The translations under genes were made by a program, and so were the position numbers. The notes under the pieces are model-generated. The model ran no database searches, was not told the DNA's origin, and saw nothing but the letters and a program-made list of their open reading frames with translations. A DNA stretch of 64,000 nucleotides, taken from Ceratodon purpureus. Its lineage: Eukaryota > Streptophyta > Bryopsida > Pseudoditrichales > Ditrichaceae. This document shows, in pieces, positions 11,147-35,536 of this stretch. Each line of letters starts with the position of its first letter. Within the stretch, counting starts at the first letter, position 1. The DNA is taken from NCBI GenBank assembly GCA_014871385.1, contig CM026433.1:6335585-6399584 (forward strand), written 5' to 3'.

Positions 11147-11225
11147 CAGGGTTGTTCATGGGACAAAAGGACCGGTCCGTCCGTCCGGTCCGCTCGTCCG
11201 TCCGTTAGGGGTCAGGGGAGGTCCG
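11147..11225. repeat. E1 left terminal inverted repeat and subterminal GTCCGTCC cluster
   Basis: CAGGGTTGTTC at the tip corresponds to CATGGTTGTC read inward from the right end (35536 downward). Inside it lie repeated GTCCGTCC and GGACCGGTCC words, also present inside the right end and at the E2 left end (51045-51110). Clustered subterminal motifs are often transposase-binding sites in hAT elements; here that is inference. Confidence 0.75.
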
Positions 11226-11364
11226 TTTGACCAGGACTTACGGTTGACCACCCAAATGGTGAAATGGGAGTTACCTTGGCCACCTAGGATGCCACGCGTC
11301 TGACATGTCACCAAATATTCCACATATATTGTTGACTCGGGGGATGACGTGGCTAAGAGGAAGG

Positions 11365-11605
11365 GCGCCAACGCCTTGAGTGACGGGGGCGCGAGCGCCT
11401 GAGAGGGGGGACGCGAGCGTCTTGGGAAGGGGGGCGCGAGCGAGGGGGCGCGAGCGACTGGGAGGGGCGCGGGCGCCTGCGAGGGGGGGGGGCGCGAGCG
11501 CCTTTGATGGTGGGGGGGCGCGAGCGCCTGCGATTGCAGGGGGGCGTGAGCAAGGGGTTTAGGGTGGGGGCGCGAGCGCCTGCGAAGGGGGGGCGCGAGC
11601 TGGGA
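11365..11605 (+). repeat. GC-rich array A1 (GGGCGCGAGCG repeats)
   Basis: About ten irregular copies of GGGCGCGAGCG(CCTGCGAG) are separated by G-runs. The array lies between the left end of E1 and the 3' end of the transposase. ORFs crossing it on both strands (Pro/Arg-rich or Gly/Arg-rich) are composition artefacts. Confidence 0.9.
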
Positions 11606-11885
11606 ACAAGAATCAACCACTGAAGGAAATTAAGACACTACTGAATTTTTCATAGTGACATAAATGAGAGAAGTTTTAATTCATGTCGAAACAAAATTAC
11701 ATTCAATAGCCTTAGCTAATGTTTTATGGACATTGACTAAGGTTAACATATAAGTATCTACGTATAAAATTTAGATATATATATATATATATTATATTTT
11801 TTTGTGTTTTTTTAAAATTATTTTGGAGACATATATATTATACTTTCTCTATATAACTTCTATATGTAATATGCTAATAGATGTA

Positions 11886-14800
11886 TCACTTTTTTTTGTT
11901 TTTTTTGGCGGTGCGCCGCTCTGGATTCCTTCGAGTACCGGGCTTACCCAATGGTACTCTTACAACAATGTCTTCATCATCAGGTGCTTCTTCACGGCTA
12001 TCTTCTGATGAGTAATATCCTTCTGAGGATTTCGACCCCTCGTCATCTCCATCTCCCCCCCTGATTAGGCACATATTCCTCCACCGTGGAATGAATGTTG
12101 CGCAATTCGTGGTCAATTGTACCATCCACCACTGTGGTCACAATTCTTTTGATCTTCCGTCTTTTGGTCTTATCGGTGATTCCGTCCACATTCATTACGG
12201 GTAATCTACGTTTACCCACAGCCACAGGTAAAGACGGGGTAGTTCCAACAGTATATCCTGAAAAAAAAGGGCGAACGTTTGTTGGACCTTTCCGTGACCG
12301 TATCACTCCATGACGCGTCGTAGAAGGTCCAGCTGGTAGACTTCGTCCAGAAGAAGTGAGTGGAATGCTTGTATTCGGTGTTGGAGTTAATGAACCATGC
12401 CCAGTAGAAGTGCTTGAACGAGGTGGAGGGGGTCGACCCAACCCTGCAAGTACTGCTCCGATTGAAGGTGTACTCTGGGGCAGGGGTGTTTGAAACAATC
12501 GGCCAATAGGAATTTCATCTTCTTGTCCATTTCTGACTGTCTCTGATTGTTCATTTCTTGGAGGGCTTTCATCCAAACCTCCAGACCTGATTGTTTCCTC
12601 AACATTTACTGGCAAAGTGGCCTGGAGTTGTTCAACTTCTTCTCCTCCCTCAACGTCTTCTGGAATTGGAATTTGCTCTCCCATGTTGTTACCCCCTTCT
12701 TCATTGTCATTGTTCGAAACGCTACGAACGGGGTAAATGTCATCATTATTGCCACCATCGTCGCTTTGATGCTGAGTCATTTCGACTTCAAATTCATCGT
12801 CAATATCATCGTCTGCCCGATCGTATGCGACCTCGCCTCTAGTTTGTATTTCATTGACAACGTGGTGAGGCGAAGTAGATGCCTCTTCATCAAATCCTGC
12901 CCAGTCAAAAACTCCATTCGGCTGGTTAACGGGTTCAGTGCGTGGCATGTCACCATCACCATTGTCCACGGGTAACTCTGGATACTCATCATCCATAGTA
13001 GCAGGAGTGTAATGAACTCCACCGTCATCACCATCGCCTTCATTAACTTCAAGTCCGTCGTGGAATCCTTCATCTCCATCATCATCACATACGTCTTCAT
13101 CGTACATGGCTGGCACTTCTTCATCCGAGTCTTCGGAGAACGGTTGGTTCTCGTACCAAAGAACAGGATCCGCTCCACGTCGTTCTCGAAGGAGCTTACT
13201 GTTCGTGTAAATGTACACCAAGTCCTCTGCCTTCTTCACGGCCAATCGGTTGCGAACCTTACTGTGAACAAAGGAATACATGCTCCAATTTCGCTCACAT
13301 GATGATGCCGAGCATGTTAACGAAAGGATGCGCTTTGCTATCAACGGTAACGCATCGCCCCCAACCCGCTGCCACCATTGATGAGGTAGCATCTTAGTCT
13401 GTCGAATGTTTGGGGCCTCCAAAGGGCTGAATGGACCGGTGCGTTCCTCAAACTGTGTTAGCTCGAACAACACAGTATCGTGGTCCAGTTTAAGGGACTC
13501 ACTCAAATGAATTAGCACTTGCAGGAGTGCACGCTTCGCAGCACTGTTAGTCAATAGCTCGTGGCTCTTCGGGAAAATGTAGGGATTCAAAATGGCGCCT
13601 GCGTAATGGAGATCTGTCAACATCATCTTCCATCTCTTCGTAAAATGTTTCTCAAAGCGATCTGCTATAGCGGGGTCTAGGAAAAAAGGATCACCCTGTA
13701 GACGGAACACATGCTTCTTCAAATTATTCATGGCCAACCATGCCCTCCCCATTGCCGGTGTTTGTCCATCAAATGTCTTCAAGGTCACAACAGCCGGCTT
13801 CATAACATGCACAAGATTCTCACAACGTAACCAAAATGTCTCATCGAGAATGGTACTCCGTACTTGACATGCTAAGGTGTGAGCTCGATACCCGTTTGAC
13901 CGATTGAATAAAGTACCCACATATTCGTCCCATTTCGGACTGGCTACCACCTGGATTAGTGCCTCCCTCAGTTCAAGCAATCGAACAATCATCAAGTACT
14001 GGCATCCAAATCTTGTCTCCGCTGGTAACAACAGAGACAACTTCGGGCTGAATTGGCGAAACAAAGCCATGGTGACATGACGGCGACGTGTAAAATTTGG
14101 TATGCGTTTTGCCAAGGCAATCAGCTCTTTGAAGGTTGCTTCCTTCCCCTAATCTTCTAGTAAGAGGTCCATGATGTGAGCTGCACAACCTTGCTTGTAA
14201 ATGTGAGGATAAGCTTCAACCACCTGGTCCATGGCTCCCAACATCGCACTAGCATTGTCGGAGCAAATCTGTACCACATTCTGCGGTCCAACTTCTTTGA
14301 TGTACTCTTTCAATTTCCCAGCTATGTATGCCTTTGATTTCTTGTACCCCGTTGTATCAATGGAACCTAGGAATATATCTCCTGCTGGACACACAAGCAT
14401 GACATTCATCAATGGCCGATGAACAACGTTGTCCCATCCATCCGAGCAAATAGTTGCCCCGTACAAGCTAATACACTGCTTCGTTTTCTCCTCTATTCTC
14501 AACTTGAGAAGCTGCTTTGTTGGCTGGATGTGCTTGGTTCGCATTGCGTTGTATGCTGGTGGACGGTACACAAAACCCGCTTTCGATGTTGCCTCCACAG
14601 CAGCGATAAAAGATGGATGTCTAACCACATTGAAAGGCACATTCGCTTCATAAAAATAGGACGCCCATTTCTCATCCAATTCATTGCGCATCCCAATCTG
14701 ATAGGCCTCGGTAAAACTTTGTTGCCGCATAGATCTTGGTGTACATGAATTGCCTCTGCTTATAGGCGGAGTTGACTGAGACGGTTGAACTTGGGAAATC

Positions 14801-15171
14801 CTCTCCTCTTGGACCTCCTCCGTTCTCTGAGGCACTTCCGTAGATTCCTCAGCAGGCATAGACTGGCTAGAACATGGTGCCAAGTGTGCCAAGTGTGCCT
14901 CGCCATCACCACCATCAGTGCCGTATATCTCCGCATGTGTCATTCTTTTTGGTATTACATTACCACAATTGGCAAAGCCCCTAAATACGGCGGCGGGGGC
15001 CTAGGTACAATGACTCTTGCTTGAACCTTCACCCCATCCATAGTGCTTGAAAGCTCTTTGTCGTTTATAACGAAAGGTGAAATTGCACCACACACATTTC
15101 ACATGGTCCTTATCAATGAACGTCCACCACGGAGCCCACTCAGCCGTCGACTGACGCTGTTGACCTGCCAT
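11886..15171 (-). pseudogene. hAT transposase of E1 (BED finger, DUF659, hAT C-terminus), broken
   Basis: This is homologous along its length to the intact transposase at 54127-57573. ATG 15171 opens a BED-like region (EWAPWW...CVWC...HYGW). A DUF659-type catalytic region follows (SDGWDNV, VVQICSDNASAM, CAAHIMDLLLED), and then a C-terminal hAT dimerisation block (CSASSCERNWSMYSFVHSK) and a long acidic tail. Three lesions are visible. TAG at 15003-15001 stands where the E2 protein has Lys. TAG at 14151-14149 stands where E2 has Trp (EDWGKE). A +1 frameshift in the C7 run at 12055-12061 moves the acidic/basic C-terminus (EAPDDEDIVV) to another frame. All other parts stay in frame, so decay is recent or slow. 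E1 cannot encode a full transposase from this copy. Confidence 0.85.
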
Positions 15172-15381: not shown

Positions 15382-15591
15382 AGGGGGGGGCGCGAGTTTC
15401 TCCAGGTGGGGGGGCGCGAGCTTCTCCATAGGGGGGGGCGCGAGCTTTTCCAGGGGGGGGCGCGAGCTTCTCCAGGGGGGGCGCGAGCTTCTCCAGGGGG
15501 GGCGCGAGCTTCTCCAGGTTGGAGCGCGAGCTTCTCCGAGGGGGGAGGGGGGGCGCGAGCTTCTCCAAGGGGGGGCACGAGCTTCTCCAGG
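15382..15591 (+). repeat. GC-rich array A2, left part (GGGGGCGCGAGCTTCTCCA repeats)
   Basis: About ten copies of a roughly 19-21-bp unit lie directly upstream of the transposase TATA box. The array is cut at 15591 by the gypsy insertion and resumes at 27989. CCAGG at 15587-15591 is the left target duplication of that insertion. Confidence 0.9.
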
Positions 15592-16015
15592 TGTTAACCG
15601 GAGATTTATCCATCTCCCCTTTCCCACTTTCCAGTAGCAGTTTTCACAGTTTTTCATCCCTGTCCCCGACAGTCATCCAGTCGGCTGGATGAACTCTGTC
15701 AGAGCCGATTGGATGAACTCTATCGGAGCCGACTGGATGAATTCTGCTAGACTCTTAAGGCAGATTTTAGGGTTTTTGAGATCATTCCTCACTAGTGCAC
15801 TCAGAGTTAGGAGAGACTGAGGAGTCTTTATGAGCTACTGTACCATGATTTTGGGGCAGATTTGACCCTCTTTATACAGTTTTGACTCACTTTTCCACTC
15901 CTTTTGAGTGTTTTCTGCATTGTATGAGTGTTTTAGCACTATTGCTAGTTGGGTTTTTGTAGGGTTTTGATGGGTTGTGAAGGTTAGGGTTTTATGGGAA
16001 ATCCTCCCTTTACCA
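15592..16015 (+). repeat. Left LTR of nested gypsy (424 bp)
   Basis: TG...CA borders. It contains three roughly 24-bp tandem units built on GCCGACTGGATGAACTCTG (about 15678-15745). These units hold the A/GCCGAC core known in plants as the DRE/CRT site. Whether this matters for expression is inference. Confidence 0.93.
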
Positions 16016-16016
16016 T

Positions 16017-16033
16017 TGGCGACCATGCTCTAG
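16017..16033 (+). other. Candidate primer-binding site of nested gypsy
   Basis: TGGCGACCATGCTCTAG starts one base after the LTR end. It has the TGG start expected for pairing with a tRNA 3' CCA. The tRNA is not identified. Confidence 0.6.
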
Positions 16034-17012
16034 TTCGTTCCATGTGAATCTCCTGCTGTTTGGGGGCTGTCCACACACTAGAAGGGTTAGAAAGTACACT
16101 CATTAGGGCTGCAGGGGTGCAGCAGGAGCTGTTACGACCTCCTAGTAGTGCTGATTGTTGGGGGCAAGAGTCACTGCAAGTGTCTGCATTGGGGGCAGGC
16201 TGCACCATCAGCACTGGCAGAATCTTCGGGTTTCACTCAACATCAGTGGGGCAGCAGACAGAGGCCAACAAGTACTCAGGTGTTTCCAAGGTGAAGGCAC
16301 TGGTGCAGTTACAGAGGCAGACCAGCACACGTCCAGAGCGCAGTGACAGCAGAGCGGATCTGTTGCAGACTGGAGGGCGTAGGTGCTGCGACATTTTGTG
16401 AGAGGCAGAATTTTAATCACCCATCACAGTGAACTGAGGGCAGTTCACAGATCGAAAAAGGGGATACAGGCTGATCTGCAACCTCATCACGGGAGAGGAG
16501 GTGAAGGTAAGTCACTGTAACCCTAGTATTTTAGATTCAAAGTTACAGATCCAGAAAAATTGCTGTTAAGGAATTTGAATTTTGAATTTGGGTATATCGA
16601 TTGGCACCTCAGTCAGCCTTGCGGATCTCAAAGTTGGGACCTGGACAGACTGTAGGATAGTGTGGAGTACGTGAGTCTGCAATTGAATTGTGTTTTAGGT
16701 AAAACTGTAAGGACAGTTAACCACAGGATTAAAATCTGTAGGAGTTAATACACTGCGAAAAAGGGGATAGCAAACAGCTGGGAAGTATACCCCAGAACAT
16801 GTTCAGTAAAAATTTTCAGTAAGGAAAACGATGGTACTATTAACCGGGCCACACAGCTAGGGGGCTGCGGTCTGTGAGTGTTGTATTGGCAGGAAGACTC
16901 AGGACAGTCAACAGTCGACTGACTGTGAAGGGAGAAGTGCAATCAGTCAACAGCAGAGGCAAGTAGCACCATACAAGCAGCAGAACAACTCAACAGTCAA
17001 CAACCAACATCC

Positions 17013-20000
17013 ATGGAGGAGGGGGACCAAAATGACCTGCGAGCAGAAAGGCAGGCCAGGGAACGATTCAGACGCTACATGCAACGGGATGAACGGGTGA
17101 CAGAGCCAACTCCAGCGGAAGGACATGGCCGACTTAGCTCACAGGGCAGTGCGGCTAAGCAGGTAGGAGAACTCATTGACATGGAGGTGGAAAACGACCT
17201 GTCATCATCAGATGGGAGAACCAGAGAGAGCAGATTTGGAGGGGAGACTCAGTTCGAAAAAGGGGATAGGCTGAGCCGCCAGCCTGACCCAACTAGTACA
17301 CCTTGGAAGTATCAAGATATGAAGAGGACATCATCATTCAGGAGGGATTTTTCCACTGCTGCAGATGATTACAACACCTTCAGAGAAGAACGCAGACAGA
17401 CGCAGGAGGTCTTCGCAGAACCAACCCAGTGGCCCAGTACAGTCACTGGCAGAGCCGACGCGGGCACAGAGCCAACGCGGGGGCGCAGCCGACCAGTCTC
17501 TCCTGCACATCTGCCACAAACTCCAGAAACCTTACCTGCTGCTTTTCAGAGTTTGAAGCAGAAGCTGGAAGAGACCAAGAGTCGATCAGTTCAGGAACAG
17601 GGACTGGCAAATCCCACAGAAGGTGGACCCAGCAGGAATGTTCATTTTTTGGACGAATTCAGACTCCGGGCTGAGTGGGAGCAAGAAGAGGAGGACAGGC
17701 GGGCTGTGGAAGCATTCAAGGCAGACTTACAAGCTAGAAGAGAGAGGGCCAAACAGCATTCCACGACCCACACTCACAGCAGGCCTGATCCAGGTAAATA
17801 CCTCCAGCAATTGGAAGCTTTACAGCAGGCGGCACCCTCAGGCGAGGCGTCGTTACATCACTGGCATACTGAGCCACAGTGGCCGCCAGAACCGTCTCAG
17901 ACTGCATGGGAGCTTGAGTTCAACCGACGGGTCCAGGAGACAGCTCAGAGGTTAGCCACCCAGCAGTTAGCGACACAACAACGAGAGCAACAAAGGGTGG
18001 AAAGGGAAAGGCAGGAGCTAGCGCAGCTGCACGATCTATGGGAGGAACAGAGACGGGAGCGCGAACAGGAACAGACTGAAGGGATTCCGGTCAGGACTCC
18101 CTACTTAGCCGACCCAACTCCGGAGGTGCTAGAGGATAGAAAGATACCTGGACCCCTTCCAACTACAGCTCCCTCGCCAGTCCCTCGACCGCTTGCGTAT
18201 GTGGATCACCTTACAGGTGATACCTATCACTCTGCCCAGCCGACTCAGCATACAGAAATTCCTGTCAGAATAGCAGAGCCTACTTTTGGGGAATCCGTCC
18301 CTGAAGTGATTTATGGGGGGAGACCTACAGTTCACACCTCATCCTCTGCCCCAGCAGGCTACGGCCCAGCTACTGTCCCCGGAGGCCCTCACAGTACTGC
18401 ACCTACTCCACAACGTCCAAGGTATCCCACAGTGACATCAGTCGTGCGACCTCCTGCTGTGCCCACAGCCCGCACAACCGACTTCACCTCTGCGCCTCCT
18501 CGACCCCCTGTCAGTACTCAACGAAAGCAGTTGCCGTACAGAGCCTACAAGGAAGGTAGTGATCCAGATGCCCATCTCCGCTACTTCGATAAATGTGCCT
18601 GGTTCAATGGGGAAACTGATGAACAAGTGATTATCACACTGTTCGGGACGACTCTGGTGGATAAAGCCCAGAGATGGTTTGATGATTGGCTGGATCACCA
18701 TCTTTACTGCACATGGGAAGAGGCTAAGGAAGCTTTCAAACTGCGATATCGAGAGCAGGATTCAGATGAGCAGGTCTACATGACTCTCAGGACCTTCAAA
18801 CAGGGTGAGGGAGAGAAGGTACAAGATTACTATGAACGTTTTATGAAGTTGATCAAGTGCCTGCAGACAGAAGTGGGAGAAGGGTTCAAGCTCACATATT
18901 TCAGGGCAGGTCTGCTTGATTACTTGAAGGTGACTACCAGTGGGTCCACAGCAAACACTCTTACCGAACTGAAGGAGTTGGCTAGGCGCTGTGAGACTAA
19001 TTGTACTGATGCGTCGGGGAAGAAGTTATACTTTCAGGCCAAGAGGACAGAGCCGACTAATAGTCGGGCCAGTACTGCAAATGCCCAGGCAGATCAGGTG
19101 GAGACAGTCAACCGCAGGTTCTGCACGGTATGCAAGAAATTTGGGCATGAAGACAAATACTGCTTCGTGAACCCAGATAATCCAAACAACAGGCTACCCA
19201 GGGCAGATGGGAAGCCGACTGTAGGAGTTCACGAAGTATCGGCTACACAGCCGACTAGTGGCTCAGGAAGACAGTTCAACAGTAGACCTGGAGGATATCA
19301 AAACAGCGGAGCTGGCAGGATTGATGGGTGCTTCTTGTGTTTGGGCACTGACCATCAGATGCGTAATTGCCATTTACGTCTAAAGTTTCAGCAAATATTG
19401 GCTGCTGAAAAGCTAGGAACTAACTCTGTTGGTGTCAACAGTGTGGAGTTGCAGGAGTTGGATAACCCTGAAGTGGCCACTATACTAACCAGGGCGGCTA
19501 GGGTGCGAGCCGGACTTCCACTGGAAGATAAGGAACTGAAAGAGCCAGAACCACGACTGCCCAAGACTCAGGCAGACTGGGAGAAGGAGGAACGGCTCCG
19601 GAAGGAATTCATTGCTTTAACTGAGGAGATTAATCGGGAGAATGAGTTGGCACAGCAAAAGGAAGAGGAGCTTCACAAAGTAAATGTGGACAACTCTACA
19701 TCCACAGTTACAGATGGACCAGTACTAGATAGTGACTGGGCAGGGTTTCCTGATGCGGACTGCTTGCAGGAGATACCCAAGCTGGTGCCGACTGGGACTT
19801 TGACAGAGCCGACTACTTCCCAGCCTTCAACAGCCGTTAAGACTGTGAGCAGACAGATTTTACAGACACCCATTACTGTGTCTTTGGGGGAACTGCTCGA
19901 AGTGGCCCCCAACCTTACTGAGTATGTCAGAGCGAAAGTATTTCCCAATACTCAGAGACAGCATAGACTGTCATTTGAGCCGGTTCAGCATCAGCAGATT

Positions 20001-22634: not shown

Positions 22635-25600
22635 GATATCACTTCCAGGAAGATTCTGGATGCTGGGTACTGGTGGCCGACTCTCCATAAGGATGTTTCG
22701 GAGTATTGCAGGGCCTGTGATAAGTGCCAACGGGTCGGAGGATTGGCCAACACAGGACTCGCCCAGTTAGTCACCAGCCTACCTGCAGAGCCGTTCATGA
22801 AGTGGGGCTTGGATTTTGTGGGGCCCATCAAGCCAGCATCAGCCAAGACAGGTAACAGGTACATTCTCGTCGCAACCGACTATGCGACTAAATGGGTGGA
22901 GGCTAAGGCACTCCGCACGAATACAGCCGCTGTCACTGCCAAGTTTCTGTATGAGAATATTCTGACCCGCTACGGCTGTCCTCTAACTCTGGTCAGCGAC
23001 CAAGGCACTCACTTCATCAACGAGGCCATCGACTATTTGGTACAGCACTTTCTTCTGCAGCATCGGACATCCACAACTTACTATCCACAGGGCAATGGAC
23101 AAGCAGAATCGACCAACAAGGTTCTAGGGCGGATACTTACCAAACTGGTCAGTGACAACAGGATTGACTGGGATGAGCATTTACCGACTGCCTTATTCTC
23201 TTACAGGACCGCTTTTAAGGTTAGTACTGGGTATACCCCTTTTCAGCTAGTCTACGGGCTCCATCCACTTATGCCTACGGAGTACACTGTCCCTACCCGC
23301 AGAACCGACGGTGAGATTGATTTTACTCAAACTCGAGTCTTACAAGCCCGCACAGCCGACCTCGAGCAGCTCGACAGCCACCGATTGGCTGCACAGGCAG
23401 AGTCAGGAAGTCGGCAGTGGGATCGATCTCTTTGGAGCCAACAGCATTACCGGCAGAAGGATTTTCAAGTGGGAGACCATGTCTTATGGTACCCCAAGGG
23501 TGAAAAGGAGCACGCTGGAAAGTTTAAGAGCAGGTGGTTTGGGCCTTATCGGGTGCAGTACCGACTTCCCAATAATACTGCGTTATTGGTGACTGAGGAG
23601 CATTTTGAGCCCAACCCAATTATCGTGAACATCAATAAGCTTAAACCATATCGCTTTTACTCGGAGGATCAGCTAGTCACTGTGGGTCCTAAACAGCTGC
23701 CACGTGGTTCTTTCACAAACCCTAATGAGCCACTACTTACACCGGTCTCCTCCGCCGGACAGCCTTTAAGTGGAGCTACATTACCCGGCGGCGTGAACTC
23801 CTCCAGCGCAGTTAAGTCTTCGGCTGTGATGGCGGATTCCGGACTACCATCCAGCCCAGTTCGTAGCTCAGTCTCCTGCCAACCTCCCGCAGCACTCGAC
23901 CATAATAGCGCCCCGAAACCCTTCCAACTCACCTCGGTGGTAGGGTGTTTCTCGGTGGAGCCTCTTTTTGACTGCCCCGACCTCTTTCCTTCTTCACATC
24001 ACCGGCCGGACACTCTCTTTGGCTCCATTCCGCATCTTCGCCCCGCTATTCACTCCCCTCAGTCATTCCTCCCGCCCTTTCCCCCTCTTGTTTCCCCATC
24101 CTCCTACCCACCTGATGCTCCCCTCCCCCCCCGTTCCCCTTCTTCTGCTCGTGCTGTGCCCATCTCTCCCCACTGCTCACCTTCCCTCTACCCCCCCCAC
24201 ACCATCGTCTTCCCTCACGACTTGGAGCTCCTCTCGGCTGCTGCTACCTTATCGGGTACTGCGCCATCTCCTTTGCTGCAGCCAGTTTCCCCGGGTTGCC
24301 CTCAGCAGTTGACATCTTCAGTCGCAGCGGTGCCGACATCATCAGGGGGCGCTTCTTCCTCTTCTCTCCGCGCTCGTGGTCACAGCTGCGAGCTCCTTCC
24401 AGGTTCTACTGTCTCGGTCGTGCCATCGTCTCGCTGCCCCGTCTTGTCTGCAGCACTAGGTCGGTCACCTCTGTCTAGGGTTCCGGTCAGCAATTGCGTT
24501 GTTCCACTTCCGCTACCCTTACATGTCAAGACCGAGCCACTTTCGAGCCCCCTCCGTGGCCCTTCTCAATTTTTGTCTGCACATTCTAGGTCTTCCGATC
24601 CTGTCGTATTTTCACACCAACTCCTAAACCCTAGGTTTCAGTCACCGTCGGCTCAGTTGCTCTCCCCATCTCCCATTGCCGATTCTCCAATGTTAGTCTC
24701 AGCTAGTTCTCTCTGTGCCACTAATCGTTTTCACCCTCCTGAACCCTCTGAGTATTCTTCTCATAGTAGTAGTGATTCAGACACATTAGATTTTCCTGTA
24801 TACTGTTCCCAGCGCTCGGTGCCGTGTGTTGACAGGGCCGACTTCATCATCGCCAACCCCGCCCAGGCCCCCCACCGGCAGTCACGTCTAGGCAGACGCA
24901 GAAGACGGGGGCAATTTGGCACCTTAGAGCGGTATTTCGGCCGTGGAGTTCTTCATCCGGCCAACTGTCAGGAGATCATGGAGGTCGGCGGTCCCAGCCA
25001 ACCACCACCTGCGCCAACAGCCCCTGCCCGGAGCGACAACGATGAGCCGACTGCTCCGGCCACCACTCCAGCCACAGTTTCTGCGACTGACCCACCACCT
25101 CCAGGGATTACTCCACCGACAGGCGTCACTGCTCCGTCTTCTGAGACTCAGCGTCGTGGGGCGAAACGCAAGCTCACACCGATTGATGGACGCGCCCCCA
25201 AACGGATTTGTGTTACCAAGCAAGCACGTCGGCGCTGGGAGGTTCAGTTCGAGCCCTTCACTTGCTGGACTGCGTGGACAGCTATGTCTGATGATGACTG
25301 GGCTGCCCAGACCAGCCTCGAAGTTTTCTATAACTTCAAGTGGCCTAAACCTCGTACGGAGCTGATATTGGACTTCGTCGAAGGCTTTGAGTATGTGCAG
25401 CCACCTCCTGGAAAACGCCGACCTGCTGCCGAGCTTGGAGGGCCTATACGGTCTATGGTTAGGGGTAAACCAGTCGAGGTCACAGCCTTTGTCATCCGGG
25501 CTGCCCTAGGATTTGAGGCCGGCACCGACTTGGCGGGTCGCAAGCCCGTCCATGGTTTCCATCGCCGATACTCCAGGTACGGTCTCAGCGCAGCCGACCA

Positions 25601-26369
25601 CAAACATGACGGTAACCGAGTCACTGCCCTTCTTCCTGATTATCAGGTTCGAGTTCAGGCCCTCGGTGACGCCATCGGTTTTAAGGGGCGCCATATTTTC
25701 GTGAGCAACGACACCTTAGAGCACCTCTTTGCAGCAGAGGAGGCGGGCGCTCACGATAAAACCTTTGATTGGTCCCACTTTGTGCTGACTAACCTTCGCC
25801 GCCACCTTGTCTACATACATTCTCAAGCCCCGGGTGTACGGCGCCTGCGAGGAGCGGCTGTGATGGACGCCATATTGTCGACCTGGTTTCCCGAGCGTGA
25901 GGACATCACCGCCCTCCTTCCCATCTCTTCGAGCAAGGACACCCTGGATGGTAGCCACGAGGGTGCCCCAATCAGCGACCCTCGACCACCGCACCCCAGT
26001 AGCTCGGTTTTGCGTGACCAAACGAGCGGAGCCCACCTGCCGACAACTGTTGAAGCCTCGGCGGTTCTACCAGCAGTCACCACCCCCACCTCCAAATCTC
26101 AGGAGGGGTCTTCTGACGTTGGTCGGCCGTCTCGCCGCCTCCTACGAGAACACAGCCGCCCCCAACCGACAGATCCCACTCCGCCCCTGGACGAACCTCT
26201 TCACACCACCCCCCTGATGGCTACGGCATCTCCCTCTTGTCGGTACCCCCTTCGGTCCCGTACCCCTGTTCCTGTAGTTCCTGTTCTTTCCTCTGATTCT
26301 GAGCTCTTCGTGGTCGGTCGAACTACAGCACCCTCGCGAGTACCCCTTGCGCGTGTCTGCAGCTCTTAG
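22635..26369 (+). CDS. Gypsy integrase plus long C-terminal extension (same frame after a TAG)
   Basis: This continues the gag-pol frame after the TAG; the first ATG is at 22743. The rest of the H2C2 finger (CRACDKCQR) is followed by the DDE integrase core ([22 protein letters not shown]) up to about 23230 and a [10 protein letters not shown]-terminal fold. No chromodomain was seen. About 500 residues of Pro/Ser-rich linker then lead to a distinct domain (about 25225-25890) with [15 protein letters not shown]-like and [18 protein letters not shown] segments. That domain resembles the accessory-ORF domain of plant Ty3 elements and, loosely, the LTR-borne ORFs in this window. Its function is unknown. 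Confidence 0.85.
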
Positions 26370-26384
26370 AGTGAGTCACTGACG

Positions 26385-27386
26385 ATGGATCAGCAACCAC
26401 CCACATCCCCGACGCCATCCAACAACTCGGCCCCGCCCCCAACACTGCCGACTACACCCCGATTTCAACCTGAGGATGCGGCGGTTCTCAACGAGACACG
26501 TGGAGCAATCATCCTCTGGCGACCGCCCTTCGATTGGAGTCATCTTCTCCACACCACAGCAGCACCGACAGAGCCGACTGCAACCGCGGCAGGAACGGCC
26601 ACCAACCCCAGAACCGGACAGTCGCAGCCTCTCCCAACGAGCACCGCCAACCGCGCAACTGTTGGCCCCTCTCCATCGAATCATCTTCCCCGGCAACAGT
26701 CAGGGGCGGCATCTGGTGAACCTCCTGAAGATTCGTTTGGCAGTCTACCAATCAGCGCCACCACCACATCAGATTTTCAGCTCCTACTGAACAACCTGAA
26801 CGCCCTAGCAACTGTCCTTGTCAGGACACGAGCAGCGGCTCGCCAGTTAGAGGCTACGCGCCTCTCTAGTGCCAACCGAGTGACGGCCCTCGAATCTCGT
26901 CTTACCGACCTCACTGGGCAGGTTGACCTCCTTACACATCAACTCCAGGTTTCCGAAGCAGCGAATGAGGCCGTGCTTTTAGAGAACACAACTTTGCGGG
27001 CCTCAGTCACCGACTTGCAGGGACAGTTAGGTAATGCCGCGGCCAATCACAGCCGACCTGAGCCAAGCCTTCGTCGTCTCGAGCTTGAGCATCAACTCAG
27101 CACTCGCCTTCGACAGGCTGATCTCCTGATCTTAGACAACCAGCGGCTTACTCTACAGCTGGCCACCCTCACTCTCCCTCCGAGAGAACTCAGCCGAGCA
27201 GTCCGGGACTATGCCACTACCAAGCAGCAAGACCTTGAAGCTGCCCTCACAGCCCACCGGGAAGATTTTGCACGTCAGCAGCGGTGGCTTCGCCGGTTCG
27301 AGGAGCGCGACCCCCTGTTCGAACCATGGTTAGAAGACGAGGAGACCTTCGGAGCAGAGCCGACTTCGCCCCACCAGACTCCATGA
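26385..27386 (+). CDS. Third gypsy ORF, 333-aa coiled-coil protein
   Basis: It starts 15 bp after the stop of the polyprotein and is intact. An N-terminal Pro/Thr-rich part (1-120) precedes a long heptad-rich helix (about 130-300; VTALESRLTDLTGQVDLLTH, LENTTLRASVTDLQGQL) and an acidic end. No enzyme motif is seen. It lies between pol and the polypurine tract, where Tat- and Athila-type elements carry extra ORFs. A role in particle assembly or nuclear targeting is possible but not shown. Confidence 0.75.
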   Translation: MDQQPPTSPTPSNNSAPPPTLPTTPRFQPEDAAVLNETRGAIILWRPPFDWSHLLHTTAAPTEPTATAAGTATNPRTGQSQPLPTSTANRATVGPSPSNHLPRQQSGAASGEPPEDSFGSLPISATTTSDFQLLLNNLNALATVLVRTRAAARQLEATRLSSANRVTALESRLTDLTGQVDLLTHQLQVSEAANEAVLLENTTLRASVTDLQGQLGNAAANHSRPEPSLRRLELEHQLSTRLRQADLLILDNQRLTLQLATLTLPPRELSRAVRDYATTKQQDLEAALTAHREDFARQQRWLRRFEERDPLFEPWLEDEETFGAEPTSPHQTP

Positions 27387-27550
27387 AGCCTGCCCTACGC
27401 ACTGCGACATCTCCGGCACGGCTCATTGTCTGTAGATAGCAGTTGTTGGTTCTGTTTAATTTTTCTCTTCCTTTTCATTTTTCCTTCTCCTTCGCCATGT
27501 TTCCGGCCATTACCTTTTCTTCCCCTGCCGTTCTGAGGACAGAACTACCG

Positions 27551-27564
27551 GAAAAAGGGGATAA
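27551..27564 (+). other. Polypurine tract of nested gypsy
   Basis: GAAAAAGGGGATAA directly precedes the right LTR start TGTTAACC. This is the expected plus-strand primer position. Confidence 0.8.
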
Positions 27565-27988
27565 TGTTAACCGGAGATTTATCCATCTCCCCTTTCCCAC
27601 TTTCCAGTAGCAGTTTTCACAGTTTTTCATCCCTGTCCCCGACAGTCATCCAGTCGGCTGGATGAACTCTGTCAGAGCCGACTGGATGAACTCTGTCGGA
27701 GCCGACTGGATGAATTCTGCTAGACTCTTAAGGCAGATTTTAGGGTTTTTGAGATCATTCCTCACTAGTGCACTCAGAGTTAGGAGAGACTGAGGAGTCT
27801 TTATGAGGTACTGTACCATGATTTTGGGGCAGATTTGACCCTCTTTATACAGTTTTGACTCACTTTTCCACTCCTTTTGAGTGTTTTCTGCATTGTATGA
27901 GTGTTTCAGCACTATTGCTAGTTGGGTTTTTGTAGGGTTTTGATGGGTTGTGAAGGTTAGGGTTTTATGGGAAATCCTCCCTTTACCA
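27565..27988 (+). repeat. Right LTR of nested gypsy (424 bp)
   Basis: Same length as the left LTR, with four differences seen by eye (two in the GCCGACTGG repeats, one at GAGCTACTG/GAGGTACTG, one at GTTTTAGCAC/GTTTCAGCAC). It is followed by the CCAGG duplication. Confidence 0.93.
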
Positions 27989-28412: not shown

Positions 28413-29993
28413 CTACAATGTGTATCTAAAACAACCATTGGGAGCTTGGAAGTTGTAAGGGGGGCTCATCAAATCATTCACAACTTTTGCAAGTGAAAGC
28501 CTCTTTGTAGGATCTTCGTTAAGCAAGCCATCCAACTTTGATGAGAATACAATCTTTGAGATTGAATCCTTGAAGAGTTCTGGGCAATCTTCTTCTCTCC
28601 ATATCTTCTTTGCCAAATGGCCTACCGAAAATGCATCAGATAGCGTCGTACATGGATGCATCCTCTTCATGCGCTCCATATTCCGTTCCTCATCATCTTT
28701 TTTGCCATATAAAAAGAACAACTCCGGTGCAACTCCTACCCTCCTCTCCTTTACTTGTACATGTTCATCGGGGTCCATCACACCATAAGGGGAGGCCTTG
28801 TTCTCAATGACTCTGCTTGCCACACCCCAATCGCACACACCAATATATACTTTATCCTTGTCATGAGGTGGAAAGTGGAGTAGAATGTTGGATGGCGTTA
28901 AGTCGTTGTGGAGGATTTCAGCCTTATGGACTATGTCCATAACATAGATGAGACTCCACGCCAACATTCCCCGGTTCTTTCGGTAGGCAACAATTCTTTG
29001 GCACTCTTCCATGGGCATATCCCTCGACTTCAAAATTTCTTTGTAATCTGTTGCCTCGGATGCCTTCTCATTTATCTTGAGGAAGTTGCGGAGGCAATCT
29101 CCATTCCACCACAGGGTATAAGCTTCCATGGTCTTAGCGTGAATGGCCCAAAATTTTATCACACCCGGATGCTCTACGGGGTTAACCGTGGCCTCAATCG
29201 CCCGTTCCTCTCGCTTCTTCACTTCGGTTTTAGCCTTGGAAAGTTTTCCCGCAAATTCTATGTGAATTGGAATTTTCGTCATATTGGCTATTCGCACTTT
29301 TCGCACTTTGCCATACCCCCCCTCGGCATTGAAGCCAGATAATGGCACAACCTTGGCCGTAACCAAAATCCATATCAATGCACCATACATGTGTGCTTCC
29401 AATGCTGAGTTCAATGCTTGCTCATTCCAAGGCATAATCTTTGTTTTCCCCTTAGAACATCTCTGACATGCCTCCTGAACCGTTGTCAGTTTTTGAATAA
29501 ACACTTTGTCTTGGTTGCTCCATTCTTCGCCTTGTGGTTTCTTGACATGTGATTCAAACACATGAATGACATTTGTCGTAGCACTACTCACTTGTTGTGT
29601 CAACCACTTCGGGCTGTGAAAATACTTCGTCATGCAATCCATGTACATCTCTGATCCTTCCAATGCGCTCCAAAATTCCCTTTCCAAATCACGTTGGAGG
29701 TTGTAGATACCATTCTCTCCGTGATCAAGGTACATTGCCTTCAACATTCGTATGGTACGGGCCTTGTAGTACTCAACGGCCACCTTTCTGATGAAATGCG
29801 TATACTCCAATGGTGGATAACCGTCATCCTTCTCGTGCGCTGGAATACTCTTCTTCTTTTTACCCTTCGAGCTAGATGAAGGAGTAGAACCACTAGAACC
29901 ATGAGGTGTTACGCAACTCATAGGGTCCACCGCATCTGGAGCATCCAAGTCCACATACATAGGCCGCTTGCCGGAGCCTTGTCTAGAAGACAT
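28413..29993 (-). CDS. Protein-kinase-like protein of transposon E1
   Basis: The intact 526-aa ORF is homologous to the E2 protein at 51668-53236. Both start M-S-x-(R/S)...GSGKRP-YVDLDAP and have a conserved helical N-terminal half without recognised domain. The C-terminal half is a kinase fold: Gly loop GGYGKV (225-230), candidate VAIK lysine in EFAGK (250), catalytic loop HNDLTPSNILL (362-372), DWG in place of DFG (388-390), VAPE (421-424) and DAFSVGHLAKKIW (453-465). All catalytic residues (K, D, N, D) are present, so activity is plausible. Target and role are unknown. Two kinase copies kept open in two elements, one of which has a dead transposase, suggest selected function or recent loss of the rest. 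Confidence 0.8.
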   Translation of the reverse strand: MSSRQGSGKRPMYVDLDAPDAVDPMSCVTPHGSSGSTPSSSSKGKKKKSIPAHEKDDGYPPLEYTHFIRKVAVEYYKARTIRMLKAMYLDHGENGIYNLQRDLEREFWSALEGSEMYMDCMTKYFHSPKWLTQQVSSATTNVIHVFESHVKKPQGEEWSNQDKVFIQKLTTVQEACQRCSKGKTKIMPWNEQALNSALEAHMYGALIWILVTAKVVPLSGFNAEGGYGKVRKVRIANMTKIPIHIEFAGKLSKAKTEVKKREERAIEATVNPVEHPGVIKFWAIHAKTMEAYTLWWNGDCLRNFLKINEKASEATDYKEILKSRDMPMEECQRIVAYRKNRGMLAWSLIYVMDIVHKAEILHNDLTPSNILLHFPPHDKDKVYIGVCDWGVASRVIENKASPYGVMDPDEHVQVKERRVGVAPELFFLYGKKDDEERNMERMKRMHPCTTLSDAFSVGHLAKKIWREEDCPELFKDSISKIVFSSKLDGLLNEDPTKRLSLAKVVNDLMSPPYNFQAPNGCFRYTL

Positions 29994-30107: not shown

Positions 30108-30129
30108 CGCAGTGGGAAGGAGTGAGGGG

Positions 30130-30382
30130 GGCGAGAGCTTCTCCCCACCTTATATAGTCCCCCACGGACCCGCTCGCGCCCCCCCCTGAACCCGCTCGCG
30201 CCCCCCTGTACCCGCTCGCGCCCCCCCCCCCCCCCCCCTATACCCGTTCGCGCCCCCCCCGTACCCGCTCGCGCCCCCCCACCCGCTCGCGCCCCTGTAC
30301 CCGCTCGCGCCCGTACCCGTCCGCGCCCCCCCCCCCCCACCCGTTCGCGCCCCCTCGGACACGCTCGCGCCCCCCCCCCTTC
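30130..30382 (-). repeat. GC-rich array A3 (CCCGCTCGCGCCCC repeats)
   Basis: About twelve irregular copies of the reverse complement of the A1/A2 core, directly upstream of the kinase promoter. Array orientation switches across the kinase gene in E1 and also in E2. Confidence 0.9.
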
Positions 30383-30519: not shown

Positions 30520-31410
30520 CCTCTCATGCAGCTCTCTTCCACTCCATGCTGTTGATTTAATTTTAAAACGTCTATCTCCCAAACCAATTGCATCGATCCC
30601 TTCTTTATGATTCTTTATAATATGTTAGAGCATTGTAGGATCCGTATGTACAATGCATTATATTTTTTATTTTTTTAAACTGTAATCCTTCGTATTTCCA
30701 CACCATGCTATTCTTTTTATTTTATTCCTTTTATCTCTTCCACTCCATGCTATTGATTTAATTTTATTCCGTTTATCTGCCAAACCAATTGCATCGAGCC
30801 CTTCTTTATGATTCTTTTTTTTTTTTTAATTATATGTTAGAGCATTGTAGGATCCGTATGTACAATGCATTATATTTTTTATTTTTTTAAACTCTAATCG
30901 AACTCTCTTCCACACCATGCTATTCTTTTTATTTTATTCCCTTTATCTCTTCCACTCCATGCTATTGATTTAATTTTATTCCGTTTATCTGCCAAACCAA
31001 TTGCATCGAGCCCTTCTTTATGATTCTTTATATTTTTAATTATATGTTAGAGCATTGTAGGATCTGTATGTACAATGCATTATATTTTTTATTTTTTTAA
31101 ACTGTAATCGAACTCTCTTCCACACCATGCTATTCTTTTTATTTTATTCCTTTTATCTCTTCCACTCCATGCTATTGATTTAATTTTATTCCGTTTATCT
31201 GCCAAACCAATTGCATCGAGCCCTTCTTTATGATTCTTTATATTTTTAATTATATGTTAGAGCATTGTAGGATCCGTATGTACAATGCATTATATTTTTT
31301 ATTTTTTTAAACTCTAATCCTGGGTATTTCCACACCATGCTATTCTTTTTATTTTATTCCCTTTATCTCTTCCTCTCCATGATATTGATTTTATTTTATT
31401 CCCTTCGTCT
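30520..31410. repeat. AT-rich satellite, 210-bp unit, about four copies
   Basis: TATGTTAGAGCATTGTAGGA recurs at 30621, 30833, 31043 and 31253 (spacing 212, 210, 210). Each unit holds CTCTTCCACTCCATGCTATT and ATGCATTATATTTTTTATTT segments. No ORF. E2 has a different, purine-rich 143-bp satellite in the comparable position (58840-59925). The stretch 31410-31820 after it is AT-rich and shows nothing else. Confidence 0.9.
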
Positions 31411-31824: not shown

Positions 31825-32118
31825 GAGGGGACCCTCTCGCGCCCCCCCTTGATCCCGCTCGCGCCCCCCCATACCCGCTTGCGCACCTCCCCCTGAACCC
31901 GCTCGCGCCCCCCCCATACCCGCTCGCGCCCCCCCCCATACCCGCTCGCGCCCCCTAACTCGCTCGCGCCCCCCCCCCCCCGAGACCCGCTCGCGCCCCC
32001 CCCTAAACCCGCGCGCGCCCCCCCTTAATCCCGCTCGCGCCCCCCCTCAGCCGCTCGCGCCCCCCGACCCCGCTCGCGCCCCCCCGACGCCGCTCGCGCC
32101 CCCCCCCCCCCCCCCCCC
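31825..32118 (-). repeat. GC-rich array A4 (CCCGCTCGCGCCCC repeats)
   Basis: About fourteen copies upstream of the RING gene, ending in a long C run. The orientation relative to its gene is the same as for the transposase arrays and opposite to the kinase arrays. Confidence 0.9.
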
Positions 32119-32146
32119 ACTTTTTAAGCTCCACCTTGGCACTCAG

Positions 32147-32310: not shown

Positions 32311-32426
32311 CAAAGTATAGTTACAATACCATAATCAACCACGGAGGAAAATTGTAAAATCAATTGGGGGAAGTTTTGAGGAGTTGGTGTGTTTTTTAAC
32401 ACACAAAACTTTACCACTACACCACG

Positions 32427-34815
32427 ATGGAGGGAAACCCAGATCCGGCGGAGGAAAGGCCACTCACCAAGGCCGAAAAGAAAAAAATCAGAGATCGTGA
32501 ACGGAAGCGTGGTGGTAAGAAGATGAAGAAGCGGCTTCATGTGCTGAACAACCCCACAAAGTTGGCATTTAGAGGTTGGCAAGATGAGCCGGAACCGTGG
32601 AAATATTCCACATGCGAGGAATTCATTGAGTGGTGCCACATCACAAAAATATTTCCACATGATCGGCACAGAAAACACAGGATCTCAGACAAGGCTAACC
32701 TCTATTATTGCTTGAATGCGGAGTTTGTTGAACGTTCTATACAAGTTTACCAGCATCTATACAAGCAACGATGTGTTGAACGCAATGAAGTACCATTGTT
32801 CATTTGCAGAATGGTGTATGCTGAGGTGGTGCTTCACAAAGTGGTGGATTGGTCCACCATCAAATCCACGCCGAGTGTTAGGGCGCCGACAGAGCGTGAC
32901 ATTCCCAAACAAAGGAAATACGCAGATGGTGGCCTGGGGAAAAAAATGAAGGAAAAAACACAAGTGCGGGAGCCTGATACAGCAGAGTCTGAACCAGATT
33001 CTGATTCCGATGGTCGTCGTGGAGAAAGAGTGCCACGTAGAATTGCAGCACCAGCAAATATGGCTGTAGAGCCTCCAATGAACCATCCAGCGGACGTCAT
33101 AGAACCTCACGACGATGCGAACACCATCTTCGTGGAAAACGATCCAAATACGGCAGCTAATTTGGACGTGGTCGGAACTGAACCTACGATGGTTCTTGGC
33201 ATGCCGGTTCTAGTTAGAAATGACCAGTCTAACCAGACCGAGGAGGTCGGGGAGTTACAATTACAGCTAATAGAAAAGGATGGCTTCATTGCAAAGTTAC
33301 AAGAGACCATCCAAAAACTACGATTGGAATCAGCAGCAAAAGATGCAGTAATATCAGATTTGCGCAATCAATTGCAAGAACGAGAAAGACCTCAGTCTTC
33401 TCAAGCCAATGATATACCTGTAGTTCAAGATCCAATGTTGGTGGATGAATCTTACATCAACAACACGGTTGATGTTGCGACAGCCGGTGTGTTGGAGAAT
33501 ATTTCCACTCCAGCAAAACGACGACGAGTTGGAGTGATATTGCCTCCACCAGCCCCATACCCGCGACCCTATGTGGACATCGATGGACCATTAAGTCAAG
33601 ATTCCTTGTCATTTCCACCCAATGCTCTAACGGGAGAAGTGAAGACATTGAAGAGAGCCAATAAAGATTTGCGGCTCCTTGTTTCTAAGTTTGCTAAAGC
33701 ATACTACGAGTGGAAAGTGGCAACCATTCTCAGCGTTGATCGCGGTCGCCAAATTGCATTAGAGTTCAAGAAGATCGACGAATCGTACTTGCAACACAAC
33801 AGACGAAGGAATTTTGGCCTCACTTCATGGACTAACGCAGATGATATGTATCCAGATAACATGCCAAAGCAAGAATCGAATCCTGAACTCATAGATTGGG
33901 CCCAGTTGAATTTCGATGTGAAGAACGCAACTTCGTGCCATGATCTTCAGATGAAGGAAGGAGTTAATAGCAGAAAGCTTTGGCCAAATCCTCAACCGTG
34001 GGTGATGGATGGTTCAAAAGAATGTAGTGTGTGTATAAATACATTTGGTCCTGAGGGTGGATGGGCAGTTGAATCATGTACCCACATGTTCCATCCAATG
34101 TGTTTAATTAACATTTTTTTGGTAAGGAGATTTTGCCCGGTGTGCAAATCCCCGTTCCATGAACGCTTGTACGAGGTTTTTGGACTCACTCCATACATGC
34201 CACCAAGCCATGAGAGAAATCCCGAAAACACACCAGGTGAACAGTACCGCAACATGTGGGGGGAAGATTTGATTTGGAGTTGGCGGGCCCAGACTCACTC
34301 GGTCTTCAAGAGCAATGTAAGTGACGAGTTGGGGTGGGAGGATGACCCCAATCAGATTGTGAGGGTGGCAAAGAAGATAATTGGATCAAAGAAGGAGGAC
34401 CAAGGGAAACGAAATTTCTTCTATCAGACTTTGAATGGATACTGGGATCCGAAGCATAGGAAGTTCCAACTTGGTAATCACCCAAAAGGCCTCATATGGA
34501 ACAAGGACGGGGAATTGGTTACAGACCTCGAAGGTCAATTCATGTCTTTGACCGCCCGTGATGCAGTCCAATTTCCAAATGTCTCTTTCGGAGTGGAAGT
34601 TAATTTTCAAACATGAGGCTGTTGACTTTCTTCTGGAGGAACACTCTCCACAGACATTGCGTACATTGAGAGAATTGAGGAACTTGCAAATTTTGTGTTC
34701 TCTCAGTGAAAGTGATGGCCCATTCCGGCGGACACGGACGAGAGCCAGGCGCAGCTTGACGCTGGACGATGGAGCGGGACCAAGTGGCACAGCGGGAGTA
34801 GATGCAGATGAATAG
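32427..34815 (+). pseudogene. RING-H2/coiled-coil protein of E1, frameshifted near its C-terminus
   Basis: The first frame runs 32427-34616 (729 codons). A basic N-terminus (KAEKKKIRDRERKRGGKK) and a conserved-looking region (about 45-150) precede an acidic linker, a coiled coil (about 275-325; LQLQLIEKDGFIAKLQETI) and a second helical region (about 405-460). A RING-H2 finger follows at about 533-573: C-x2-C-x14-C-x-H-x2-H-x2-C-x(n)-C-x2-C (CSVC...CTHMFHPMC...CPVC). This is the arrangement of E3 ubiquitin ligases. The E2 homologue at 62319 continues as SEW-(x3)-F-(x2)-AVDFL and then NDGAG. In E1 these residues appear only in the next frame, up to 34815, so one base was gained or lost between about 34560 and 34590. 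The RING itself is upstream and unaffected. Confidence 0.75.
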
Positions 34816-35065
34816 GAATAGTTACAACTTAGTACTAAGTGACTAGTTTTCATATACTACAGTTTTTGTAATGTTTTGGTTTGAATTGGTAATGAAATGC
34901 TTTTACTTTCATAAATGTATACAACTTTGCAAAGTCCATGTATTTTGGCTCACGAGTATCTCATTTTTTCTATGCTGAATTTACACTTTTGTCATTGCGC
35001 TTAGCCCCAATATATTATTCTGATGAAAATGTTAGGTTTTTTTGCATTGTCAAAAATTTACTATC

Positions 35066-35312
35066 TACCCCGCTCGCGCCCCCCCTGAACCCGCTCGCGC
35101 CCATTCCCCCTGAACCCGCTCGCGCCCCCCCTTGAACCCGCTCGCGCCCCCCCTTGAACCCGCTCGCGCCCCCCCCTGAACTCGCTCGCGCCCCCCCCCC
35201 TTGAACCCGCTCGCGCCCCCCCCCTGAACCCGCTCGCGCCCCCCCCCTGAACCCGCTCGCGCCCCCCTGAACACGCTCGCGCCCCCCCTGTACCCGCTCT
35301 CGCCCCCTACAC
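35066..35312 (-). repeat. GC-rich array A5 (CCCGCTCGCGCCCCCCTGAA repeats)
   Basis: About eleven copies of a roughly 20-23-bp unit between the RING gene and the right end of E1. Like A1 it is subterminal, and the two are inverted relative to each other, as expected for end-recognition sequences. Confidence 0.9.
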
Positions 35313-35454
35313 ATGCTGGCACCCCTTTTGCATATGTGGAATTCCCCGTCATCGTTCGTTGTCCACGTCATCAATATGTTTCCCCTATAGGTAAGTTGTA
35401 AAAAAAAAAAACTAACTTAGTAATTTTCCTCCTCCCCTCAATGTCCGATTATGT

Positions 35455-35536
35455 CCCGGGACCGACCGGTCCGTCCGTCCGTCCGTCCGTCTATGTCCGG
35501 AAATTTTGCCCATGTCCGTCCGAATAGACAACCATG
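35455..35536. repeat. E1 right terminal inverted repeat and subterminal GTCCGTCC cluster
   Basis: The element ends ...GACAACCATG. Read inward, CATGGTTGTC is identical to the first 10 bases of E2 (51029-51038). A run of GTCCGTCC lies just inside. Confidence 0.8.

What the first reader, a model, noticed from the sequence alone, without database searches (positions are those of the whole stretch)
11147..35536. Giant hAT transposon carrying a kinase and a RING protein, with perfect 8-bp target duplication
The sequence shows matching ends (CAGGGTTGT / ACAACCATG), GATAATTG on both sides, a hAT transposase relic, an intact kinase-like gene and a RING-H2/coiled-coil gene inside one element. Known hAT elements are small and usually encode only the transposase. 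A kinase plus a ubiquitin-ligase-like protein as fixed cargo suggests a transposon that manipulates host signalling, protein turnover or DNA repair. I know of no described element with this set; that is from memory.
Basis: partly seen in the sequence, partly recalled or inferred. Interest (0 to 1): 0.95.

Follow-up and report, generated by a model that had tools for sequence, protein, structure and literature searches.

The report
Moss jumping gene carrying two enzymes
A large family of "jumping genes" in the moss Ceratodon purpureus carries, beside the enzyme that makes it jump, the same two extra genes (a protein kinase and a protein that looks like a ubiquitin ligase), which suggests that the jumping gene brings its own tools to handle the host cell.

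Summary
Window 11147-35536 is a hAT-type transposon with exact 8-bp duplications (GATAATTG). It is not 24 kb by nature: a 12.4-kb LTR retrotransposon with its own 5-bp duplication sits inside, leaving 11,988 bp. The host is the moss Ceratodon purpureus. A second, diverged element with the same three genes (identity 48/39/55%) starts in the window at 51029: 15,650 bp, duplication GTTACATA; 40 of 40 scored places elsewhere hold its joined flanks uninterrupted. 9 of 9 further loci examined over 20-30 kb hold transposase, kinase and RING genes, though only 2 of 7 type-1 loci have all three unbroken. In 10 of 10 sampled type-2 copies both ends lie where predicted, duplications identical in 8. Type-1 ends: 285 left, 213 right, controls 0. 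Kinase and RING are fixed accessory genes of a hAT lineage, probably active recently. Their function is inferred, not shown: most likely a phosphorylation/ubiquitylation pair acting for the transposon on host proteins. Transposons with accessory genes are known; my ten paper searches listed no hAT with this pair, and Repbase could not be searched.

The parts
11139..11146 (.). 8-bp target-site duplication GATAATTG, left of element 1
11147..11178 (+). left end of element 1 (32-mer CAGGGTTGTTCATGGG...); 285 places in the genome with up to 2 mismatches, control 0
11363..11597 (.). G+C-rich minisatellite near the left end (GCGCGAGCG units)
12043..14943 (-). hAT transposase (DUF659 + Dimer_Tnp_hAT), broken in this copy by one in-frame stop between the two open frames; 57 of 64 listed places in the genome have an open frame of at least 1000 aa
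15382..15591 (.). G+C-rich minisatellite, cut in two by the nested LTR element (other part 28028-28193)
15592..27988 (+). nested Ty3-type LTR retrotransposon (LTRs 15592-16015 and 27565-27988, 4 of 424 sites differ; duplication CCAGG at 15587-15591 and 27989-27993); not cargo of the hAT element
28413..29993 (-). protein kinase gene, 526 aa, one open frame
30159..30380 (.). G+C-rich minisatellite (83% G+C)
30533..31402 (.). 210-bp tandem repeat, 4.2 copies
31831..32106 (.). G+C-rich minisatellite
32427..34616 (+). RING-H2 protein gene with a long helical stretch, 729 aa, shortened at the C end relative to P0107 (793 aa)
35069..35307 (.). G+C-rich minisatellite near the right end
35507..35536 (-). 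right end of element 1; the family's right-end 30-mer occurs at 213 places (up to 2 mismatches), control 0
35537..35544 (.). 8-bp target-site duplication GATAATTG, right
51021..51028 (.). 8-bp duplication GTTACATA, left of element 2 (the right copy lies beyond the window)
51029..64000 (.). element 2, same family, other subfamily; runs on to contig position 6402262 (15,650 bp in all); inserted in a Ty3 retrotransposon
51668..53344 (-). kinase gene of element 2 (558 aa, 48% identical to the first)
54127..57573 (-). hAT transposase of element 2, one open frame of 1148 aa
62319..64000 (-). RING gene of element 2; its frame continues past the window end (893 aa stop to stop)

Best explanation
Shown: this is one copy of a hAT-superfamily transposon lineage of the moss Ceratodon purpureus whose members carry three genes (transposase, a eukaryotic-type protein kinase with a helical N-terminal domain, and a RING-H2 protein) between short inverted ends, flanked by 8-bp duplications. 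At least two subfamilies exist: type 1, about 12 kb, order transposase-kinase-RING with the RING gene on the opposite strand; type 2, 14.4-16.5 kb, order kinase-transposase-RING, all on one strand. Inferred: the transposase moves the element by hAT cut-and-paste. Kinase and RING protein are kept because they help the element, most likely as a pair in which the kinase marks host proteins and the RING protein ubiquitylates them, acting against silencing or steering the cell's state or repair at transposition. No step of that function is shown here.
For: Two subfamilies with 48% (kinase), 39% (RING) and 55% (transposase) identity over the aligned parts and different gene orders keep the same set. 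9 of 9 further loci read over 20-30 kb (7 type 1, 2 type 2, one of these the window's element 2) hold all three genes. Listed places, limited to best scores: 51 of 82 type-1 kinases have a listed transposase (64 listed) in the expected place, 37 of 82 a listed RING (61 listed); wrong-orientation controls gave 1 for the ends and 2 for the RING, none was run for the transposase. 56 of 78 type-2 kinases have a listed RING (79 listed), 50 of 59 pairs at 7.3-10.7 kb; controls 0 and 4. Type-2 ends exact in 10 of 10 sampled, duplication identical in 8, one mismatch in 1, not matching in 1. Empty sites: 40 of 40 scored places, 136 candidates. Kinase: K250, E267, H362, N369 and D388 invariant in 41 aligned sequences, D364 in at least 90%; model pLDDT 84.6, best PDB matches are kinases. 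RING: all eight zinc ligands in 20 of the 22 rows that align through the RING motif, 28 rows in all. pN/pS among 8 type-1 copies: kinase 0.35, RING 0.51, transposase 0.80. Another genome: kinase P0060 and transposase P0161 are both listed with a longest contig of 15,563 bases.
Against: No biochemical, expression or transposition data; substrates unknown. The RING model has low confidence (pLDDT 56.7) and no PDB match. pN/pS rests on few differences (3.9 synonymous per kinase pair), and pooled copies cannot separate selection for the element from selection in its ancestor. Genome lists show only the best places, which favours intact genes. Many copies are damaged: of the 7 type-1 loci only C11b and C6 have all three genes without a stop or a split match; transposase is broken in C4, C9 and C11a, RING in C1, C9, C10 and C11a, and RING also in the type-2 locus C2. 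In type 1, 3 of the 10 copies whose two ends I read lack matching duplications. Four of 20 probes beside RING genes without a listed kinase gave neither kinase nor transposase, two more were N.
Confidence: 0.68

Rival explanations
1. Kinase and RING protein act on the element's own transposase: the kinase switches it, the RING protein limits its amount, timing jumps to a cell-cycle phase and keeps copy number tolerable.
For: Fixed linkage with the transposase in two subfamilies. The transposase has a long acidic, presumably disordered C-terminal part outside the Pfam domains, a possible target of phosphorylation (inference).
Against: No interaction data. Self-limiting proteins acting in trans would be hard to keep intact in many copies (general argument, not tested).
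Confidence: 0.22
2. Passive passengers: an ancestral hAT element captured two host genes and they hitch-hike without a role.
For: Gene capture by plant DNA transposons is common (recalled). Several type-1 loci have a broken RING gene beside an open kinase.
Against: Both genes persist with catalytic and zinc-binding residues across subfamilies only 39-55% identical. Listed frames without stops: kinase 80 of 82 (type 1) and 69 of 78 (type 2), RING 52 of 61 and 67 of 79 (the lists favour good copies). pN/pS is below 1 for both.
Confidence: 0.08
3. Not one element but a chance nest: separate small elements or host genes lying between unrelated hAT ends.
For: Half of the given interval is a nested retrotransposon. 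Minisatellites separate the genes.
Against: The same spacing recurs: kinase to transposase 1.8-2.0 kb in 47 of 52 listed pairs; 47 convergent end pairs under 30 kb among 100+100 listed ends, 30 of them 11-13 kb, control 4; exact duplications outside the whole set; empty sites without any of it.
Confidence: 0.02

Closest known systems
hAT superfamily (Ac/Tam3 type; DUF659-containing branch)
   Same: Transposase domains DUF659 and Dimer_Tnp_hAT, short inverted ends beginning CA, 8-bp duplications.
   Different: About 12-16.5 kb instead of a few kb, and two further conserved genes; usual size and gene content are recalled, not from a call.
Fungal hAT7 and IS3EU elements that carry TET/JBP and, in IS3EU, alpha-kinase genes (PMC12730594; passages seen)
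   Same: DNA transposons with fixed regulatory enzymes beside the transposase; one of the lineages is hAT, another carries a kinase.
   Different: Fungi, 7-bp (hAT7) or 6-bp (IS3EU) duplications, other cargo. The kinase here matches PF00069 and no alpha-kinase model; the word RING has 0 occurrences in that paper.
Arabidopsis VANDAL elements with VANC anti-silencing proteins (PMC5735166, PMC10398659; start of abstracts seen in a listing)
   Same: A plant transposon that carries an accessory protein serving the element, the role proposed here.
   Different: VANC is a sequence-specific anti-silencing protein of a Mutator-like group (group recalled), not a kinase/RING pair in hAT.
Lanisha elements (Maumus, McDaniel and Carey, Repbase Reports 2020; seen only as cited in PMC12730594)
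   Same: DNA transposons of a clade with CA..TG ends, reported by authors who overlap with those of the Ceratodon genome paper (overlap partly recalled).
   Different: EnSpm-like transposase with 2-5 bp duplications for that clade, according to PMC12730594; this element is hAT with 8 bp.

Membership tests
hAT superfamily | hAT transposase domains (Dimer_Tnp_hAT; DUF659 branch) | tested here: met
hAT superfamily | 8-bp target-site duplication | tested here: met
   Type 1: 4 exact and 3 with one mismatch of 10 copies with both ends read, 3 not matching. Type 2: 9 exact and 1 with one mismatch of 11, 1 not matching.
hAT superfamily | short terminal inverted repeats | tested here: met
   9 bp shared at the two type-1 ends, 19 bp at type-2 ends in 10 of 10 sampled
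hAT superfamily | catalytic D, D, E | tested here: inconclusive
   Candidate motifs CSDGWDN, CSDNA and CERNWS are visible in the frames; assignment is from recall, no structure was made
hAT superfamily | moves by excision and insertion | not testable with these tools
   Insertion of element 2 supported by 40 empty paralogous sites; excision not observed
protein kinases | kinase fold with catalytic Lys, Glu, Asp and metal-binding Asp | tested here: met
   activity not tested
RING E3 ubiquitin ligases | eight zinc ligands of RING-H2/HC | tested here: met
   20 of the 22 rows that align through the RING motif keep all eight; of 28 rows, 4 are blank there and 2 align only a few unrelated residues, these 6 left out
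RING E3 ubiquitin ligases | E2 binding and ligase activity | not testable with these tools
   none
Lanisha | EnSpm-like transposase, 2-5 bp duplication | tested here: not met
   transposase is hAT, duplication 8 bp; criteria as in PMC12730594

The most novel reading that the evidence does not exclude
The hAT lineage encodes a complete phosphorylation-to-ubiquitylation counter-defence: the kinase creates a mark on a host silencing or DNA-repair factor and the RING protein recognises the mark and removes the factor, as some viruses do with their own ligases. It would be a transposon-encoded kinase/E3 module, and part of why these elements reached hundreds of copies in a moss genome.
Probability: 0.28. 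Interest if true: 0.92.

Novelty: new variant of a known kind. Interest (0 to 1): 0.74.

Why it matters
Plant hAT elements are thought of as simple one-gene elements (recalled). A lineage that keeps a kinase and a RING protein through deep divergence, with many near-identical copies in a moss, makes it testable whether transposons encode their own enzymes against host control. It also matters for annotation: many kinase and RING genes of this genome (160 and 140 listed places) may be transposon genes and not host gene-family expansions.

Tried and rejected
Rejected: one 24-kb giant (half is a nested LTR element). Rejected: dead family (57 of 64 listed type-1 transposase places have an open frame of at least 1000 aa, 36 of 40 listed type-2 places no stop; the lists favour good copies). 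Rejected: identity with Lanisha. Viral collections: three scans gave no relative. GTDB contigs: 3 weak partial kinase matches, 34-43% identity over 51-73 query residues, not followed. PDB profile search lists only protein kinases at E up to 0.001. The RING fold model was too poor for a match. NCBIfam gave nothing above its cut-offs. Shared contig lengths: 15,563 between kinase and transposase hits is kept as suggestive; 2,719 between kinase and RING hits is too short to hold both genes and shows that chance matches occur (76 of the 77 transposase hits were typed, P0199 has no contig length). Paper searches: ten; no title or abstract in the listings was of a hAT element with kinase and RING; two papers were opened, by passages only. 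The Ceratodon genome paper itself is not held and Repbase cannot be searched here, so a description there is not excluded. No expression data were sought.
Full report
What is there. The interval 11147-35536 begins CAGGGTTGTTCATGGG and ends GACAACCATG, with GATAATTG directly outside both ends. Inside lie a hAT transposase on the minus strand (DUF659 and Dimer_Tnp_hAT), a kinase on the minus strand and a RING protein on the plus strand. A Ty3-type LTR retrotransposon of 12,397 bp occupies 15592-27988; its LTRs differ at 4 of 424 sites and it has its own duplication CCAGG. Without it the element measures 11,988 bp. G+C-rich minisatellites lie near both ends and between the genes; the measured stretches of both elements have 65-83% G+C, the window 49%.

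A second element in the same window. At 51029 another end (CATGGTTGTCATAATGGAC) starts inside a Ty3 retrotransposon. It is followed by a kinase, a transposase with one open frame of 1148 aa and a RING gene that runs off the window. Fetching the next stretch of the contig shows the right end: 15,650 bp, GTTACATA on both sides. Its kinase, transposase and RING are 48%, 55% and 39% identical to those of the first element over the aligned parts, and the gene order differs. Joining its two flanks gives a 320-base sequence that is present uninterrupted at 98-100% identity in 40 of 40 scored places (136 candidates): empty paralogous sites.

Host. The genome holds 362.5 Mb in 151 contigs. Contig C6 is 110,524,308 bases long. 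A public Ceratodon purpureus protein, KC19_VG232100, is listed on a contig of exactly that length, so the host is this moss and C6, by the locus tag, its V sex chromosome (the reading of the tag is inference). A review gives sex-chromosome assembly sizes of 110.5 and 112.2 Mb, for U and V in that order, which does not agree with my reading of which is which (PMC9273592, passages seen).

Copy number and co-occurrence. Genome searches score only the best candidates, so all counts are lower bounds and favour good copies. Listed: type-1 kinase 82, RING 61, transposase 64; type-2 kinase 78, RING 79, transposase 40. The type-1 left end occurs at 285 places and the right end at 213, controls 0. Of 100 left and 100 right ends printed, 47 pairs face each other within 30 kb (30 of them 11-13 kb; control with the same orientation 4), and 27 of the 47 contain one of the 82 listed kinases. 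Type 1: 51 of 82 kinases have a listed transposase in place (47 of 52 pairs at 1.8-2.0 kb; no control run), 37 of 82 a listed RING (control 2), 43 of 82 one of the 100 printed left ends (control 1). Type 2: 56 of 78 kinases have a listed RING within 40 kb, 50 of the 59 pairs at 7.3-10.7 kb; controls 0 and 4. Of the 24 type-1 RING genes without a listed kinase, 20 were probed with one 251-base stretch each: 11 gave the kinase, 3 the transposase, 2 were N and 4 had no protein match; of these four, one adjoins a listed transposase and one holds the element's minisatellite.

Whole loci. Seven type-1 loci and two type-2 loci (one the window's element 2) were read over 20-30 kb; 9 of 9 hold all three genes. 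They are not all intact: only C11b and C6 of the seven type-1 loci show no stop and no split match in any of the three genes; transposase is interrupted in C4, C9 and C11a, RING in C1, C9, C10 and C11a, kinase in none; of the two type-2 loci, the window's is unbroken and C2 has a split RING match. In C11b, C10, C6 and C2 only one end lay in the stretch.

Ends and duplications. Type 1: beside the window and the seven loci, ten more copies were sampled at predicted end positions (every fourth place of the kinase list from rank 10 to 46). Both ends were read in 10 of these 18 copies: duplication exact in 4, one mismatch in 3, not matching in 3; in the other 8 one end was not in the stretch, one stretch being N. 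Type 2: ten copies on the minus strand with both kinase and RING listed were sampled, so this sample tests ends, not co-occurrence; both ends exact in 10 of 10, duplication identical in 8, one mismatch in 1, not matching in 1; lengths 14,386-16,482 bp. Copies without matching duplications may be recombinants (inference).

The proteins. Kinase: 41 aligned relatives keep the residues that fit the ATP lysine (K250), helix-C glutamate (E267), catalytic aspartate (D364, at least 90%) and metal-binding aspartate (D388); roles assigned from general kinase knowledge. The model is confident (pLDDT 84.6), shows an all-helical N-terminal domain of about 150 residues, and matches kinases in the PDB. RING: C3H2C3 or, in some rows, C3HC4 ligands, complete in 20 of 22 rows; 4 of the 28 rows are blank at the RING and 2 align only a few unrelated residues there, and these 6 are not counted. 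A long helix, presumably a coiled coil, lies at residues 270-320 of P0107. Transposase: of 8 type-1 copies compared, the window's and one other hold an in-frame stop. Public relatives exist (106, 26 and 77 proteins), 67 of the 106 kinases on contigs of 1-4 kb and 25 of the 26 RING proteins on contigs of at most 5 kb, whose origin is not stated; four of the transposase relatives carry plant or algal names (Physcomitrium patens, Ceratodon purpureus, Jatropha curcas, Chara braunii). One kinase (40% identical to that of element 1) and one transposase (44% identical to that of element 2) are both listed with a longest contig of 15,563 bases, which suggests the same linkage in another genome.

Selection. 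Among 8 type-1 copies pN/pS is 0.35 for the kinase, 0.51 for RING and 0.80 for the transposase; ten kinase copies gave 0.39. Differences are few, so this is an indication only. Together with the survival of the set at 39-55% identity it speaks against idle passengers.

How it probably works. The transposase should cut and paste the element as other hAT transposases do (established for the superfamily, not shown here). For kinase and RING three readings remain: they act on host proteins for the element (preferred), they regulate the transposase, or they are passengers. I favour the first because both are typical regulators of other proteins, both are kept as a pair, and other DNA transposons carry proteins aimed at host control (VANC, and probably TET/JBP). 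Substrates are unknown.

Known or new. Accessory genes in DNA transposons are known, including TET/JBP in fungal hAT7 and an alpha-kinase in fungal IS3EU (PMC12730594, passages seen). The listings of ten paper searches showed no hAT with kinase and RING. Repbase and the Ceratodon genome paper could not be read. I therefore call it a new variant of a known kind.

Noticed in passing
window 15592-27988: The nested Ty3-type element has, behind pol, a further open frame (26385-27386, 333 aa, weak coiled-coil-type matches below cut-off) and a very long C-terminal extension of the integrase frame (22743-26369).
   Followed up: partly
window 8659-9117 and 36893-37333: Two small acidic open frames of similar look lie on either side of element 1; no Pfam match; they may be copies of one gene family, not aligned here.
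   Followed up: no
window 9721-10752: 343-aa open frame with a hydrophobic N-terminus and a weak, sub-threshold match to plant self-incompatibility protein S1 (E 0.046).
   Followed up: no
window 58909-59917: 143-bp tandem repeat, 7 copies at 93%, between transposase and RING of element 2; type 1 has a 210-bp tandem array between kinase and RING. These arrays and the G+C-rich minisatellites might be functional spacer or subterminal regions.
   Followed up: no
G000:C2:23504331-23519551: Two type-1 RING genes in opposite orientation flank one transposase: a nested or rearranged copy.
   Followed up: partly
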